This document shows positions 12,253-18,720 of a DNA stretch of 27,500 nt, piece by piece. The notes below the pieces were generated by a model. The model searched no databases, was not told the DNA's origin, and worked only from the letters and a program-made list of their open reading frames with translations. The stretch's first letter is position 1. The number at the start of each line of letters is the position of its first letter. The position numbers and the translations under genes were made by a program. The stretch lies in the NCBI GenBank assembly GCA_030141585.1, contig JAQIFP010000063.1, forward strand, positions 1 through 27,500, in the 5' to 3' direction. The DNA comes from Ophryocystis elektroscirrha. Lineage: Eukaryota; Apicomplexa; Conoidasida; Neogregarinorida; Ophryocystidae.

Positions 12253-12658
12253 ATGAAAGAAACAATAAATTTATTGAGCGAATTGTCCCATGAAGATGAA
12301 GGTAATAAGGGTGTTTTCAGAACACTAGTAATAAGTGTCGAGCAATATAAAAAATACAACCAATATACAGTCGACTCCAAAAAAGACGTAAAAGATCGGC
12401 AGGTTTGAGTCATCTTATTTGATTTTGAATTTCATATAATTGCTTTAAAATTAATTATGTGTGACTTTAAAGTAATATAATTATTAATTATACTTATCTC
12501 GTTTCGCATACCTTTTTTTTTTTTTTGAAAAAACTTATATTATGCAATTGAATCTTTAAAAAAAAAAAAAAAAGAGAAACCTTATACACAAGCTGCAGTG
12601 TGTTATTTTGGAAACGCTTATTGAACTATATCTGCAACGACAAATTAAATTGCATTAA
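12253..12658 (+). CDS. Small unknown gene, two-exon model (about 71 aa)
   Basis: Not recognised. Exon 1 runs from ATG 12253 to 12402 (KETINLLSELSHEDE, then VFRTLVISVEQYKKY and DSKKDVKDRQ). The 190-nt intron 12403-12592 contains T and A homopolymers. Exon 2, 12593-12658, ends VILETLIELYLQRQIKLH. The second exon looks like an amphipathic helix. Upstream, the same frame is open from another ATG at 12178 (PTAKKRRH, a possible nuclear signal) but is broken by a TAG at 12244. That part may be an upstream ORF, or may be joined by a 27-nt intron (12234-12260), which would give a product of about 87 residues. The minus strand is also open here (12090-12413), but its composition is less protein-like. 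The DHHC gene starts 85 nt downstream. Confidence 0.45.
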
Positions 12659-12743
12659 TTAGAATATAATCAAACAACTTTTTTTTTTTTTAATAAAACT
12701 ACGTGTGCTTTTTTTTTTTTCGAAATGCATAAAAATTATAAAA

Positions 12744-14300
12744 ATGTCCTCTGATCAGATTAATAACATAAGTCAAAATTCTCGCATAAATGTGCCCTCC
12801 GCGCTGAGGAGAAAGCGTAATAAAACTCCTTTCAGTCATAAAATGTTTAAGTTCATTCCTGTCGTACTTGTATTTGTAGTCGTAGCATTTATTTATTTCA
12901 GTTACTTATATGTAAGAGAAAAAAAAAGTTCTTACATGGTACAGTTACACTTACTTCCGTTACTTCAATTAAACGTAGAGGAAAAAAATCAAACAAACTT
13001 TATTGTGGGTTTAGCAACAACTATAGCTTTTCATTTTTATTTAATCTTATTTTTAATATGCTATATATTAAATCTTATAATATCTCCTGGTAAGTAAGCC
13101 ATACTGTTGGTAATATAAATATACATAAGCTTATTTAATATTATATATACGTGAACTGATTATTCAACTGCTAGATACTTTATTTATTTTTGTAAGATAT
13201 ATTACAGAGTATACGTGTATTGTTTATAGCGTATTAATTGACAAAATAACTTAATAAAATGTATATATAAAATTAATACTGCACTTGAGCATATTATAAC
13301 CCACTATTCGATGTAGTCATATCTAAGAAGCTCTCAATTAGTTATGTTGAATTGCCAGTAGAGATAAGACCTTATACAACAGCATTTTAATATATTCGAA
13401 ATTATGCAATTACGTGTTATTGATTAGAGAAAATAAAAATTATGGTTTTTTAGGTTATGTAGCCACAAATGAAAATTGGATGGATAACATTGAAGACTAT
13501 TCAAATAAAGTAAAAACTCTAGATTTACCAATAGATGTATTTTAAAACTTTAATTATATAATTTTCAAGTTTTTATAATGTGCCATATATTCTTTGTACT
13601 CCCGCTAATATTTAAAATATCAGGAAACAAAAAAAGAAGGTTCTCGACGTTTTTGTAAATGGTGTCAAAATTATAAGCCGGATCGTACACATCACTGCCG
13701 TCAATGTCGTCGTTGTGTTTTAAAAATGGATCATCATTGTTCATGGACGAACAATTGTGTCGGGTTAGAATATATATTATTCTAAATAGTGTTTTATTAG
13801 GCATGGAAATCATAAAACGTTTGTATTATGTTTAATATATGGAATAATGTGCCTATTTATAATAGCAACTACACAGATCCAAACTTTAGTAACATTAGGA
13901 TCTAATGAATCGGTATAACTGCATTATTTATGATTAATATTCAGGTCCCTTTTCTAGAGTTATATATTTTAATGGTTACAGAAACATTGTCTGTGATACT
14001 TGGAGCAATTACATTTTGTTTTTTAATATTTCATCTAATTCTGATTTCAAAAAATATGACCACAATCGAATATTGTGAAAAAAAAACCACTGGCTCATTC
14101 CACAAAAACATTTATAATCGAGGCTGGTTCAAGAATTATTTGGATGTATTTGGTTCCAATCCTCTTCTTTGGTGTATACCAATAGGTAAATTATTTAAAT
14201 TATATAATCAATAAATTTCATTAATTTTAAGCGGTATATATCTTACGTCCAAACTTATTAAATATATAACATAGGTGCTTTATATTTAATGTCTTGAATA

Positions 14301-14346
<46 letters not shown>

Positions 14347-14508
14347 TCTACTTCATTAGTAAAAAGAATGATTAAAATAATTTTATCTATATAAACCATA
14401 TTATTTTAATTATATATTGTACAAATACTAGACATAATAGGGTATATATCACATATAATCTATTAATAATATTATATAATTCTATGTATATACATCTATA
14501 TATATAAT

Positions 14509-14564
<56 letters not shown>

Positions 14565-16355: not shown

Positions 16356-16388
<33 letters not shown>

Positions 16389-16544
16389 GTATTTTATTTT
16401 TTTATTTATGTATATATGACTTACTAAATATTTACTTATATACATATATTTACTTATATACATATATTTACTTATATATATATATATTTACTTATATATA
16501 TATATATATTTACTTATATATATATATATATATATATATTTACT

Positions 16545-16575
<31 letters not shown>

Positions 16576-17725
16576 TTTATTTTTTTATTTATGTATATAT
16601 GACTTACTAAATATTTACTTATATACATATATTTACTTATATATATATATATATATATATGTATATTTATGTAGCCTATTTTAACATATATGTGCATATG
16701 CTTTAACACAAATTTACTGATATAAATTTAGTCCGTATCTACACACATTAAGATTTAGAGTAGCAATGTTACAACAGGAATTGAGCAAGCTTGTTTTGAC
16801 GCAATCTACCCGGAAGTATATATATATGCTTCGTGGAATCAATTTTTTTTAAACATTTCAAAACATGACTATTCAAAGTTCAATAAAATTTTATTCCACA
16901 ATGATGAAGAAGCTGTTACACTTCCTCTAGCTCATTTTCCTTATAGTAAGCACTATTTATTGTAGCTTATAAGATGCACATACAAATTATATAATACTAA
17001 ATATTGTTATATGTGTATACTATATTTATAATAAGTTGTAAATTCTTTTGATATATACTTGTATATCTATACATATAAATATATATATATATGTATATAT
17101 AAATATCTATATATATATATAGATGTTAGTATATATAATAAAAATTTAACTATATTTATCTATATATGTATATATAGGCGTGCAACAATCATTTAAGTTC
17201 AATTAAATTACTTGTATTATAAGAAATAGTATATATATATATATATTATATATATATATATATATATATCACATATATTGAGGTAAATTTGTGTATGTAA
17301 TTTGTATGTACACCCGAAATTGTATTAATTATTAGATAAATTTTTGCTGGCGTTCGGACGAGAAAGAGGGTATTTTGATGATGAAGTTGTTGCTTTAAAA
17401 GAAAAACTAGGATTTACTACAATATCCTTAGGAAAAAGAATCCTGAAAATAGAAACTGCATTTTCAGCAGGAATTGCACAGGTAAATTTATATATATATA
17501 TATATATAGTATTAGAATACCACTTAATAATTTGTGGTGTTTTTAGATAAAAAGTGTATATAAAAAAATAAAAAACCACACTGTATGTATTTTCAGGTTG
17601 CCATGATCGACAAGAGTACAAAGAGCCCTTGGAGTGCAAGCTGCTTTTGCGATAAAGATTTTAATAAAATAGATTTGTGTATAAAATTGCCAATAAAAAA
17701 CGTGGAAAAATCCACATTCTGTTAA
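14817..17725 (+). CDS. RsmE-type 16S rRNA m3U methyltransferase homologue (289 aa)
   Basis: RsmE methylates N3 of U1498 (E. coli numbering) in bacterial small-subunit rRNA and is a SPOUT trefoil-knot enzyme. Six exons: 14817-14918, 15498-15704, 16222-16339, 16778-16945, 17336-17481 and 17597-17725. Introns are 579, 517, 438, 390 and 115 nt. N-terminal PUA-like domain: MNLILIP, DHLTNILKVQ, GSIVRVGI. Methyltransferase part: SRPKVFSRLLQ, LGIRRLYFVATER, LGIEQA, and the knot FGRERG (205-210) with SLGKRILKIETA (229-240). Bacterial enzymes usually have GPEGG or GPERG at the knot; here Pro is Arg. No N-terminal targeting extension is seen, so an organellar site is not evident. Unlike its neighbours it has no 30-40 nt intron. 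The start codon overlaps the DHHC stop (ATGA). The 43-residue last exon is not conserved. Confidence 0.88.
15780..16120. repeat. TA-type repeats in RsmE intron 2
   Basis: About 15780-15945 is an array of AAATATATATGTATATATGT-type units (10-32 nt spacing). Pure TA runs follow at about 16038-16060 and 16088-16117. Confidence 0.8.
16355..16680. repeat. TA repeats with a 183-nt-spaced direct duplication in RsmE intron 3
   Basis: A segment of about 70 nt starting ATGTATTTTATTTTTTTATT occurs at 16387 and again, apparently identical, at 16570. TTTACTTATATA units and TA runs lie between and after the copies. Confidence 0.85.
17060..17275. repeat. TA repeats in RsmE intron 4
   Basis: Imperfect TATATAAATATC and pure TA stretches within intron 16946-17335. 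Confidence 0.7.
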
Positions 17726-17757
17726 AATAATATTTAATTTTAATATTATACAGTAAT

Positions 17758-18720
17758 ATGAAGATACATATAGGGTTGATATTTTGCTTGAATATTGTAT
17801 TCCAGCTGCACTATATCATTTTATTTTCTATTATACAGCATATACCAATGGTTATATTTAGCTGTATCGTTATTCTGAGTGATTTACTGGCCGCTATACA
17901 GCAGCGCCACCGTATGTATTTATTTACTTGTGTATGCCATTTTGTATTATTAATATATTTTTCCACGGAACTCTTGACTGGGCGTCTATTTTCCGAATAC
18001 CTGAGTACGGAAATTGAGTATATTTTATTTACCTATTTGGGAGTCTTAAATATATTTGCATTATTAGGAGCTAGTTCTGCTATAATTTTCCAAAAAAGAA
18101 TCTCCCAATATGAACTTATTAAAGCAACCCCCAATAAGACTAATAATTTGGCGGAATGTGTTACAAATGAATACACGCTCGACTTAGAGTCGAACAACTG
18201 GAACTTCCCCAAACCTCTTGAAGACGCAAAAAACCACCACAAAATTGAATTCATTTATAAATTGTCAGACTACATAACCGATCACGCACAATCTGGATAC
18301 ACCAAATTATTACAAAAATTTGCTTTTATTAAAGAAAAATTCAACCATACCTTCAAAAATAAAGTACAAAAAAGTACCCTGTTAAATAGTAATTTTTCAA
18401 ACTTAGAAAAACCTCAAAGCAGAGAGGTCAGCTTACCTACAAATACAAACATGGTACAGCACGAAATCAACTTAATTTATTTCCATCATAAAATTGAGGA
18501 GACTCCTTCTCAAAATGAACCAGCGGCGGGAGCTTTAGAAAAAAAGATTCTTTCTTCTAATGTCGAGCCATGCATTGAAGATAACAAAAAAGAAGCCGTA
18601 ATCGAGAACCAATTAGACTCTTATCCTAAATTATTATCTAATGATACATACACTAACAACCTACCCGCTATTCCCAACTGCGTAGGACCTGATGTTGATG
18701 TAGGGGAGTTTTTTCAGTAA
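17758..18720 (+). CDS. Four-segment membrane protein with long soluble tail (320 aa)
   Basis: Not recognised. Uninterrupted frame, ATG 17758, stop TAA. The first 110 residues contain about four hydrophobic segments (roughly 4-26, 28-47, 53-72 and 85-112) with short loops; an Arg/His/Gln stretch (QQRHR) follows the second. Residues about 115-320 are hydrophilic and rich in Asn, Lys, Glu and Ser, with no recognisable domain. The protein may be a small tetraspan anchor with a cytosolic tail, but this is inference. It starts 32 nt after the RsmE stop. The sequence before the ATG ends TTATACAG then four bases, which looks like a splice acceptor. It is followed by an 18-nt A run. The antisense frame at 18033-18254 is a shadow. 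Confidence 0.7.
   Translation: MKIHIGLIFCLNIVFQLHYIILFSIIQHIPMVIFSCIVILSDLLAAIQQRHRMYLFTCVCHFVLLIYFSTELLTGRLFSEYLSTEIEYILFTYLGVLNIFALLGASSAIIFQKRISQYELIKATPNKTNNLAECVTNEYTLDLESNNWNFPKPLEDAKNHHKIEFIYKLSDYITDHAQSGYTKLLQKFAFIKEKFNHTFKNKVQKSTLLNSNFSNLEKPQSREVSLPTNTNMVQHEINLIYFHHKIEETPSQNEPAAGALEKKILSSNVEPCIEDNKKEAVIENQLDSYPKLLSNDTYTNNLPAIPNCVGPDVDVGEFFQ

What the first reader, a model, noticed from the sequence alone, without database searches (positions are those of the whole stretch)
12253..18720. Plus-strand run of tightly packed genes, with a DHHC stop and RsmE start sharing ATGA
The DHHC gene ends TGA at 14818-14820 and the RsmE ATG is 14817-14819, a four-base overlap like bacterial operons. 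RsmE ends 32 nt before the next ATG, and the DHHC gene begins 85 nt after the small upstream gene. Directly before the two downstream starts are splice-acceptor-like strings at identical spacing: CTTACAG plus four bases before RsmE, TTATACAG plus four bases before 17758. This pattern would fit a polycistronic precursor resolved by spliced-leader trans-splicing, or promoters and 5' UTR introns buried in the upstream gene. Other close same-strand pairs are 11291/11246 (44 nt) and 3753/3686 (66 nt). Trans-splicing itself is inference.
Basis: partly seen in the sequence, partly recalled or inferred. Interest (0 to 1): 0.78.

Follow-up and report, generated by a model that had tools for sequence, protein, structure and literature searches.

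The report
Two overlapping genes in compact parasite

Summary
The geometry is real. A DHHC palmitoyltransferase gene ends TGA 14818-14820; an RsmE-type methyltransferase gene starts ATG 14817-14819. Both ends have homology support: the DHHC last exon carries a G..F motif shared by the 12 relatives aligned, and the RsmE ATG aligns to position 1 of its family profile. The other spacings check out; the small upstream gene has no family support. The genome is a compact, AT-rich apicomplexan (8.0-Mb assembly, commonest intron size 30-39 nt). Predicted gaps are shortest between convergent genes, longer in tandem, longest in divergent pairs, as published for Theileria. The spliced-leader reading is not supported: acceptor-like sites are no commoner before predicted starts than on the opposite strand (47 v 45 of 121; 12 v 12 of 43), and the two TACAG sites score no better than about one AG in four or five. 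Against that, a YAG in register is uncommon (8 of 903 start pairs). Genome-wide search answered once in 16 tries, so a leader-RNA gene could not be sought. Best reading: separate transcription units packed until coding ends overlap, the RsmE promoter lying inside the DHHC gene. A bicistronic transcript remains open.

The parts
12744..14820 (+). DHHC palmitoyltransferase gene; exons 12744-13089, 13454-13536, 13624-13763, 13801-13912, 13945-14185, 14735-14820; 335 aa; introns 364, 87, 37, 32 and 549 nt
   Evidence: Frame and GT-AG checked; first-draft 344-aa protein matches Pfam PF01529 E 4.9e-38; best named relatives apicomplexan; motif in exon 6 aligned in 13 sequences; same exons predicted ab initio with one parameter set when overlap is allowed
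14735..14820 (+). Last DHHC exon, carrying the DGKHF motif and the TGA stop that overlaps RsmE
   Evidence: Exon start 14735 also; chose 14708
14817..14820 (+). ATGA: overlap of RsmE start and DHHC stop
   Evidence: Sequence; with one parameter set predicted ab initio as one of 2 such overlaps in about 305 kb, with the other set not chosen
14817..17725 (+). RsmE-type RNA methyltransferase gene; exons 14817-14918, 15498-15704, 16222-16339, 16778-16945, 17336-17481, 17597-17725; 289 aa; introns 579, 517, 438, 390 and 115 nt
   Evidence: PF04452 E 1.4e-22; NCBIfam NF008700 aligned from residue 1 to profile position 1; MNLIL start in 4 of 4 homologues found; same exons predicted ab initio (lost exon 1)
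14806..14812 (+). Acceptor-like string CTTACAG, inside DHHC coding sequence
   Evidence: Score 5.34, 82nd percentile of all 22062 AGs sampled; 498 of 2286 window AGs score as high or higher
17746..17753 (+). Acceptor-like string TTATACAG before the next gene
   Evidence: Score 4.94, 78th percentile of all 22062 AGs sampled; 607 of 2286 window AGs score as high or higher
17758..18720 (+). Third gene, single-exon 320-aa protein of unknown family, hydrophobic near its N-terminus by eye; start uncertain (17758 or 17848)
   Evidence: no Pfam or NCBIfam family; no homologue at E<=0.001; ab initio start 17848
14186..14734 (+). Long last DHHC intron; candidate place for an RsmE promoter or 5' leader (inference)
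   Evidence: 549 nt against a peak of 30-39 nt for predicted introns (371 of 630); a leader-like ORF at 14566-14636 is no rarer than in other long introns (7 of 34 sense, 5 of 34 antisense), though only 14 of 500 shuffles of this intron have one
7003..7006 (.). Convergent genes whose predicted stop codons overlap (TTAA)
   Evidence: Plus-strand TAA 7004-7006, minus-strand TAA complement of 7003-7005; ab initio gene ends; one search ends the plus-strand gene earlier

Best explanation
This is ordinary gene packing in a compact, AT-rich apicomplexan genome. DHHC and RsmE are separate genes whose coding ends have met and overlap by four bases. RsmE most likely has its own transcript, with promoter and short 5' untranslated region inside the end of the DHHC gene (long intron 5 and/or exon 6). 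The acceptor-like strings are chance matches to a weak YAG signal, or at most ordinary cis 5' UTR splice sites. Shown: overlap in sequence, gene models with homology support, lineage. Shown on ab initio predictions only: intergenic pattern, lack of acceptor enrichment. Inferred: separate promoters and transcripts.
For: Both coding ends are homology-supported and one ab initio run predicts the overlap itself. Predicted intergenic medians: convergent 102, tandem 171, divergent 336 nt (n = 25, 67, 27) and 108, 164, 432 (n = 7, 24, 8); tandem lies between the other two, as expected if most genes keep their own promoter and as published for Theileria parva (PMC2612703, abstract and passages). Convergent genes, which cannot share a transcript, can also touch: predicted stop codons overlap at 7003-7006. 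Strands are not far from random (67 tandem against 52 others). Acceptor-like sites are not enriched before starts against the opposite strand.
Against: No transcript data. Gene statistics come from a self-trained model that misplaces some starts and fuses some tandem genes. A tandem ATGA overlap is rare here (2 in about 305 kb with one parameter set, none in the window-like contigs with the other). A looser measure gave a mild YAG excess upstream of 25 high-scoring starts (22 of 25 within 40 nt, shuffle mean 17.2, reached by 8 of 300 shuffles; 148 of 272 non-coding control ATGs). In one subclass, tandem pairs 101-200 nt apart, the mean acceptor score was higher sense than antisense (4.27 v 2.88, 11 v 9 of 21 above threshold). 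Several window genes have a fair acceptor-like site within 25 nt of the start. The convergent overlap at 7003-7006 is but not.
Confidence: 0.6

Rival explanations
1. DHHC and RsmE share one mature bicistronic mRNA, and RsmE is translated by termination-reinitiation at AUGA, without trans-splicing.
For: The 4-base stop/start overlap is the geometry for it. Polycistronic isoforms are reported in Plasmodium falciparum (168 isoforms; PMC9635732, passages), and some green-alga bicistronic loci have overlapping stop and start codons (PMC11291117, a preprint, passages).
Against: Leaky scanning, the mechanism tested in algae, fits poorly: the spliced DHHC reading frame holds 22 ATGs between its own start and RsmE's, whereas start codons are under-represented ahead of algal ORF 2. 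Reinitiation after a 335-codon ORF is usually inefficient (recalled). No functional link between the two proteins is known to me.
Confidence: 0.17
2. RsmE has a cis-spliced 5' leader: an upstream exon inside the DHHC gene is joined at CTTACAG/AACAATG (14812/14813), possibly adding a targeting sequence.
For: The site is a usable YAG acceptor. One ATG-to-donor stretch, 14566-14636, lies in the right phase and stays open (the other 6 rows listed run into a stop); only 14 of 500 shuffles of this intron hold such a stretch. The first gene model, which could not overlap genes, used 14813 as an exon start.
Against: Such a stretch occurs in 7 of 34 introns of 400-800 nt, and in 5 of 34 on the antisense strand. 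Its donor scores 4.3 against a median of 7.35 for such introns. The RsmE profile starts exactly at the ATG.
Confidence: 0.14
3. The run is a polycistronic precursor resolved by spliced-leader trans-splicing.
For: TACAG at identical spacing before two adjacent starts; seen before 6 of 8090 ATGs in the sample; only 8 of 903 pairs of predicted starts share a YAG in register. Related alveolates (dinoflagellates, Perkinsus) use spliced leaders (PMC3101222, passages). The mild YAG excess.
Against: No acceptor enrichment before starts against the opposite strand, tight tandem pairs included (7 of 18 v 7 of 18; 12 of 43 v 12 of 43). None of the other 8 window starts listed has an AG at the same offset. 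Exact dinoflagellate leader absent from the 28 loci then held, which cover the window only in part. Not found in apicomplexans.
Confidence: 0.04
4. The overlap is a gene-model artefact: DHHC ends elsewhere, or RsmE starts elsewhere.
For: Without splicing intron 5, DHHC would stop at about 14212. The model left out RsmE exon 1.
Against: Exon 6 carries a motif shared by all 13 aligned DHHC proteins; the RsmE start matches profile position 1 and an in-frame TAA lies just upstream at 14802-14804.
Confidence: 0.05

Closest known systems
Compact apicomplexan gene arrangement (Theileria parva intergenic regions, PMC2612703)
   Same: About 8 Mb, short introns and intergenic gaps; 3'-3' gaps shortest, 3'-5' intermediate, 5'-5' longest
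   Different: Here predicted introns peak at 30-39 nt (Theileria modes 55 and 80), and coding sequences overlap on the same strand; I did not check whether Theileria has such overlaps
Bicistronic loci of green algae (PMC11291117)
   Same: Two tandem ORFs with little or no gap; some loci with overlapping stop and start codons
   Different: The upstream ORF here is long and holds 22 intervening ATGs, against the leaky-scanning design; co-transcription unknown
Spliced-leader operons and dinoflagellate/Perkinsus trans-splicing
   Same: Tight same-strand genes, an acceptor-like string before two downstream ATGs
   Different: No acceptor enrichment in the sample against the opposite strand, no strong strand clustering, no leader RNA seen in what was held, a lineage where it has not been reported
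Bacterial ATGA operon junction
   Same: Identical four-base stop/start overlap
   Different: Eukaryotic genes with 5 introns each; no ribosome-binding-site coupling expected

Membership tests
Spliced-leader trans-spliced operon | Acceptor sites enriched just upstream of start codons, above all in downstream genes of tight pairs | tested here: not met
   Sense 47 v antisense 45 of 121 starts; tandem <=100 nt 7 v 7 of 18; tandem 101-200 nt 11 v 9 of 21; 12 v 12 of 43 in contigs like the window's. Against: 22 of 25 starts with a YAG within 40 nt, shuffle mean 17.2. Starts are ab initio predictions.
Spliced-leader trans-spliced operon | Leader RNA gene in the genome | not testable with these tools
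   The genome search answered once and then did not complete 15 times; in held sequence, only the exact dinoflagellate leader in 28 loci, Rfam on the window and 260 kb and repeated 22-mers were tried, all without a leader RNA
Spliced-leader trans-spliced operon | Transcripts sharing a non-encoded 5' leader | not testable with these tools
   No reads available
Spliced-leader trans-spliced operon | Long same-strand gene clusters, as expected of large polycistronic units | tested here: not met
   67 tandem, 25 convergent, 27 divergent neighbour pairs; the model fuses some tandem genes, and short operons are not excluded
Eukaryotic bicistronic mRNA (green-alga type) | Very short or negative inter-ORF distance | tested here: met
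   4-nt overlap
Eukaryotic bicistronic mRNA (green-alga type) | Few start codons ahead of ORF 2 | tested here: not met
   22 ATGs between the two starts in the spliced DHHC frame
Eukaryotic bicistronic mRNA (green-alga type) | One mature transcript spans both ORFs | not testable with these tools
   No reads available
Compact apicomplexan gene arrangement | Gap order convergent < tandem < divergent | tested here: met
   Medians 102/171/336 nt and 108/164/432 nt; predicted genes
Compact apicomplexan gene arrangement | Apicomplexan lineage | tested here: met
   uL13 high-scoring PDB hits include Plasmodium and Toxoplasma entries (species recalled from entry codes); DHHC best named hits Toxoplasma, Selendium, Cryptosporidium, Theileria among the 120 of 664 listed, the first four hits being unnamed
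DHHC palmitoyltransferase | Zinc-finger DHHC domain and C-terminal TTxE motif | tested here: met
   PF01529 E 4.9e-38; D179 H180 H181 C182 and T267 I268 E269 invariant in 13 of 13
RsmE 16S rRNA m3U1498 methyltransferase | Family profile with N-terminal PUA-like and SPOUT domains | tested here: met
   TIGR00046 83.6 bits, cut-off 41; PF04452 80.5 bits, cut-off 23.9; PUA_4 below its cut-off, 21.4 v 23.9
RsmE 16S rRNA m3U1498 methyltransferase | Equivalog-level score, implying the same substrate | tested here: not met
   Best equivalog 130.3 bits against a cut-off of 252

The most novel reading that the evidence does not exclude
An apicomplexan that resolves some tightly packed same-strand genes from polycistronic precursors by spliced-leader trans-splicing, the first in its phylum as far as the papers I saw say.
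Probability: 0.04. Interest if true: 0.85.

Novelty: new member of a known kind. Interest (0 to 1): 0.2.

Why it matters
If the genes are only packed, the locus is a clear example of how far an apicomplexan with a tiny genome can compress neighbouring genes, and a warning to annotation programs, which fuse or truncate such pairs. If a leader were found, apicomplexans would gain a mode of gene expression so far reported in their alveolate cousins but not in them.

Tried and rejected
TACAG at -9..-5 as a general start signal: rejected. Of the 6 occurrences only RsmE and the third gene look like gene starts; the other four open frames have 11, 20, 3 and 59 codons, the last reading by eye like an internal exon. 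0 of 25 high-scoring starts carry TACAG within 25 nt; that set does not include RsmE or the third gene, and I dropped one of 26 candidates from it (4694, an internal exon of a GPN-like GTPase gene; name by eye, not searched).

Nested leader exon 14566-14636 for RsmE: no commoner or rarer than in other long introns, though uncommon against shuffles. Fused DHHC-RsmE protein: produced by the first gene model, which cannot overlap genes; it went through very small exons, so rejected. First DHHC exon 6 start at 14708: replaced by 14735 after the alignment.

Repeated leader-like 22-mers in the held sequence (three copies or more, GC at least 6, ending in GT): only 3 words, variants of one another and apparently one local repeat. 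Rfam on window and on 260 kb: one U4 (cut by the end of its stretch), one tRNA, no leader RNA family. Homologues of the third gene: none at E<=0.001.
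Full report
What is there. The window is part of contig C78 of an unnamed 8,008,172-base assembly. Six exons on the plus strand spell a DHHC palmitoyltransferase (PF01529, E 4.9e-38), and six more spell an RsmE-type methyltransferase (PF04452, E 1.4e-22; TIGR00046 83.6 bits). The exon borders used are GT-AG and keep the frame. The DHHC stop TGA (14818-14820) and the RsmE ATG (14817-14819) share ATGA. 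The remaining spacings in the finding are right to the base: 32 nt to 17758, 44 nt at 11246/11291, 66 nt at 3686/3753, 85 nt before DHHC. The small upstream gene has no family match and competes with a predicted minus-strand exon, so I leave it open.

Are the two ends right? I first took the DHHC last exon from 14708. Aligned with 12 relatives, the nine residues from 14708-14734 are an insertion that none of the 12 has, and an acceptor TTCATTAG ending at 14734 in the same phase removes them. The last exon 14735-14820 then ends ENSKCDGKHFPVESDLIRLLDNTKLTEQ. Its G and F of DG..F stand in 13 of 13 aligned sequences, among them Toxoplasma, Cryptosporidium and Theileria proteins; the D is nearly invariant, Theileria lacking it. 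The RsmE ATG aligns to position 1 of profile NF008700, the four homologues found all begin MNLIL, and an in-frame TAA stands 12 nt upstream. A gene model trained on this assembly alone, which does not allow overlaps, starts RsmE at ATG 14817 in one run and ends DHHC at stop 14818 in another, there with exon start 14708 and without RsmE exon 1. With overlaps allowed, the first parameter set predicts the exact overlap with exon 14735; the second set does not choose it. The training set includes this locus, so this is support, not an independent proof.

Which organism. uL13 has Plasmodium and Toxoplasma entries among its highest PDB scores (I recall these species from the entry codes; the table names only the molecule, 60 of 83 rows were shown, and I did not trace the top row, 4v91_O). 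The best named DHHC hits are Toxoplasma, Selendium, Cryptosporidium and Theileria (120 of 664 listed; the first four are unnamed). Size and base composition resemble the neogregarine Ophryocystis elektroscirrha (8.63 Mb, 27% GC; PMC10210345, passages), but I could not test identity, because the rRNA search did not complete. The species stays open.

How packed is it. I built a hidden Markov gene model, with a minimum intron of about 25 nt. In C1 (200 kb) plus C78, 371 of 630 predicted introns are 30-39 nt long; the 10th to 90th percentiles are 31 to 140 nt. Neighbour gaps have medians of 102 nt (25 convergent), 171 nt (67 tandem) and 336 nt (27 divergent); only predicted genes of at least 240 coding bases and gaps up to 3 kb were counted. 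In contigs like the window's the medians are 108, 164 and 432 nt (7, 24, 8; gaps with runs of N left out; the convergent value there includes both stop codons). Theileria parva shows the same order (PMC2612703, abstract and passages). If each gene brings its own promoter, tandem gaps should lie between the other two classes, and they do. In one search two convergent genes of the window overlap at their stop codons (TTAA 7003-7006), where no shared transcript can be invoked; one search ends the plus-strand gene earlier, so this example is model-dependent. Compaction, rather than operon structure, is the simplest common factor.

Is there a trans-splice signal. If downstream genes were trans-spliced, acceptor-like sites should crowd upstream of starts on the sense strand. 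Within 40 nt they do not: 47 of 121 starts sense and 45 of 121 antisense reach the lower-quartile intron score; divergent 18 v 17 of 54; tandem 29 v 28 of 67; tandem pairs up to 100 nt apart 7 v 7 of 18; 101-200 nt 11 v 9 of 21, with a higher sense mean (4.27 v 2.88); over 200 nt 11 v 12 of 28. For the window-like contigs it is 12 v 12 of 43. A cruder count did show a mild YAG excess (22 of 25 starts within 40 nt, shuffle mean 17.2, reached by 8 of 300 shuffles; 17 of 25 within 25 nt, mean 12.9), which points the other way. The two strings named in the finding are middling sites: 498 and 607 of the window's 2286 AGs score as high or higher, and RsmE has a slightly better AG further upstream. 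Their equal spacing is a coincidence of a size that 32 of 903 start pairs show for some 5-mer and 8 of 903 for a YAG; TACAG itself at that spacing is rare (6 of 8090 ATGs). The first string is also part of DHHC codons. None of the other 8 window starts that I listed has an AG at that offset, though several have a fair site within 25 nt.

Other readings. A bicistronic message is possible: P. falciparum has reported polycistronic isoforms (PMC9635732, passages) and some algal bicistronic loci have overlapping stop and start codons (PMC11291117, preprint, passages). Leaky scanning would have to pass 22 ATGs, so reinitiation would be needed. A cis-spliced RsmE leader from inside DHHC intron 5 has one candidate exon; 7 of 34 long introns have such a stretch, 5 of 34 antisense, against 14 of 500 shuffles of this intron. 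[quoted passage not shown] a search for papers holding both 'gregarine' and 'spliced leader' gave six, seen as listings only, none of whose titles report it there.

Limits. No transcripts; ab initio starts are uncertain; the whole-genome search answered once in 16 tries, so leader RNA, snRNA and rRNA genes could not be sought genome-wide. The sample used for gene statistics is about 305 kb of 8.0 Mb.

Verdict. Real overlap, ordinary cause most likely, special mechanism unsupported.

Noticed in passing
G000 contigs: window (C78), C77, C79, C95, C110, C30 against C1 and C60: The sampled contigs are of two kinds: window-like ones with roughly 2-6% (TA)n repeats and many introns over 200 nt, and C1/C60 with almost no (TA)n (C1: 0.5% of 563 predicted introns >=300 nt, C78: 30% of 67). 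Two genome compartments or two related organisms.
   Followed up: partly
14919-17596: The five RsmE introns (579, 517, 438, 390, 115 nt) are far longer than the 30-39 nt peak in this assembly; TA repeats are visible in several of them.
   Followed up: partly
17356-17370 (RsmE exon 5): The SPOUT knot motif, GPEGG in three of the four homologues found and GPERG in the fourth, reads GRERG here. Possible change of activity.
   Followed up: no
14817-14860: RsmE begins at the domain with no targeting leader, so its rRNA substrate in an apicomplexan (organelle or cytosol) is unclear; it scores below the cut-offs of all equivalogs listed. One paper in the library holds both 'RsmE' and 'Apicomplexa' (listing only).
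   Followed up: no
7003-7006: Convergent genes with overlapping predicted stop codons sharing TTAA (not).
   Followed up: partly
3753-4213, minus strand: Looks like ribosomal protein eL39 (recognised by eye and frames; no search made).
   Followed up: no
25507-26532, minus strand: 341-aa protein with a weak Myb/SANT-like match below the Pfam cut-off (19.9 v 31 bits).
   Followed up: no
L024 (C60:5001-9000): One open frame over the whole 4 kb with long TPKTTTK repeats, like a mucin-type surface protein (likeness recalled).
   Followed up: no
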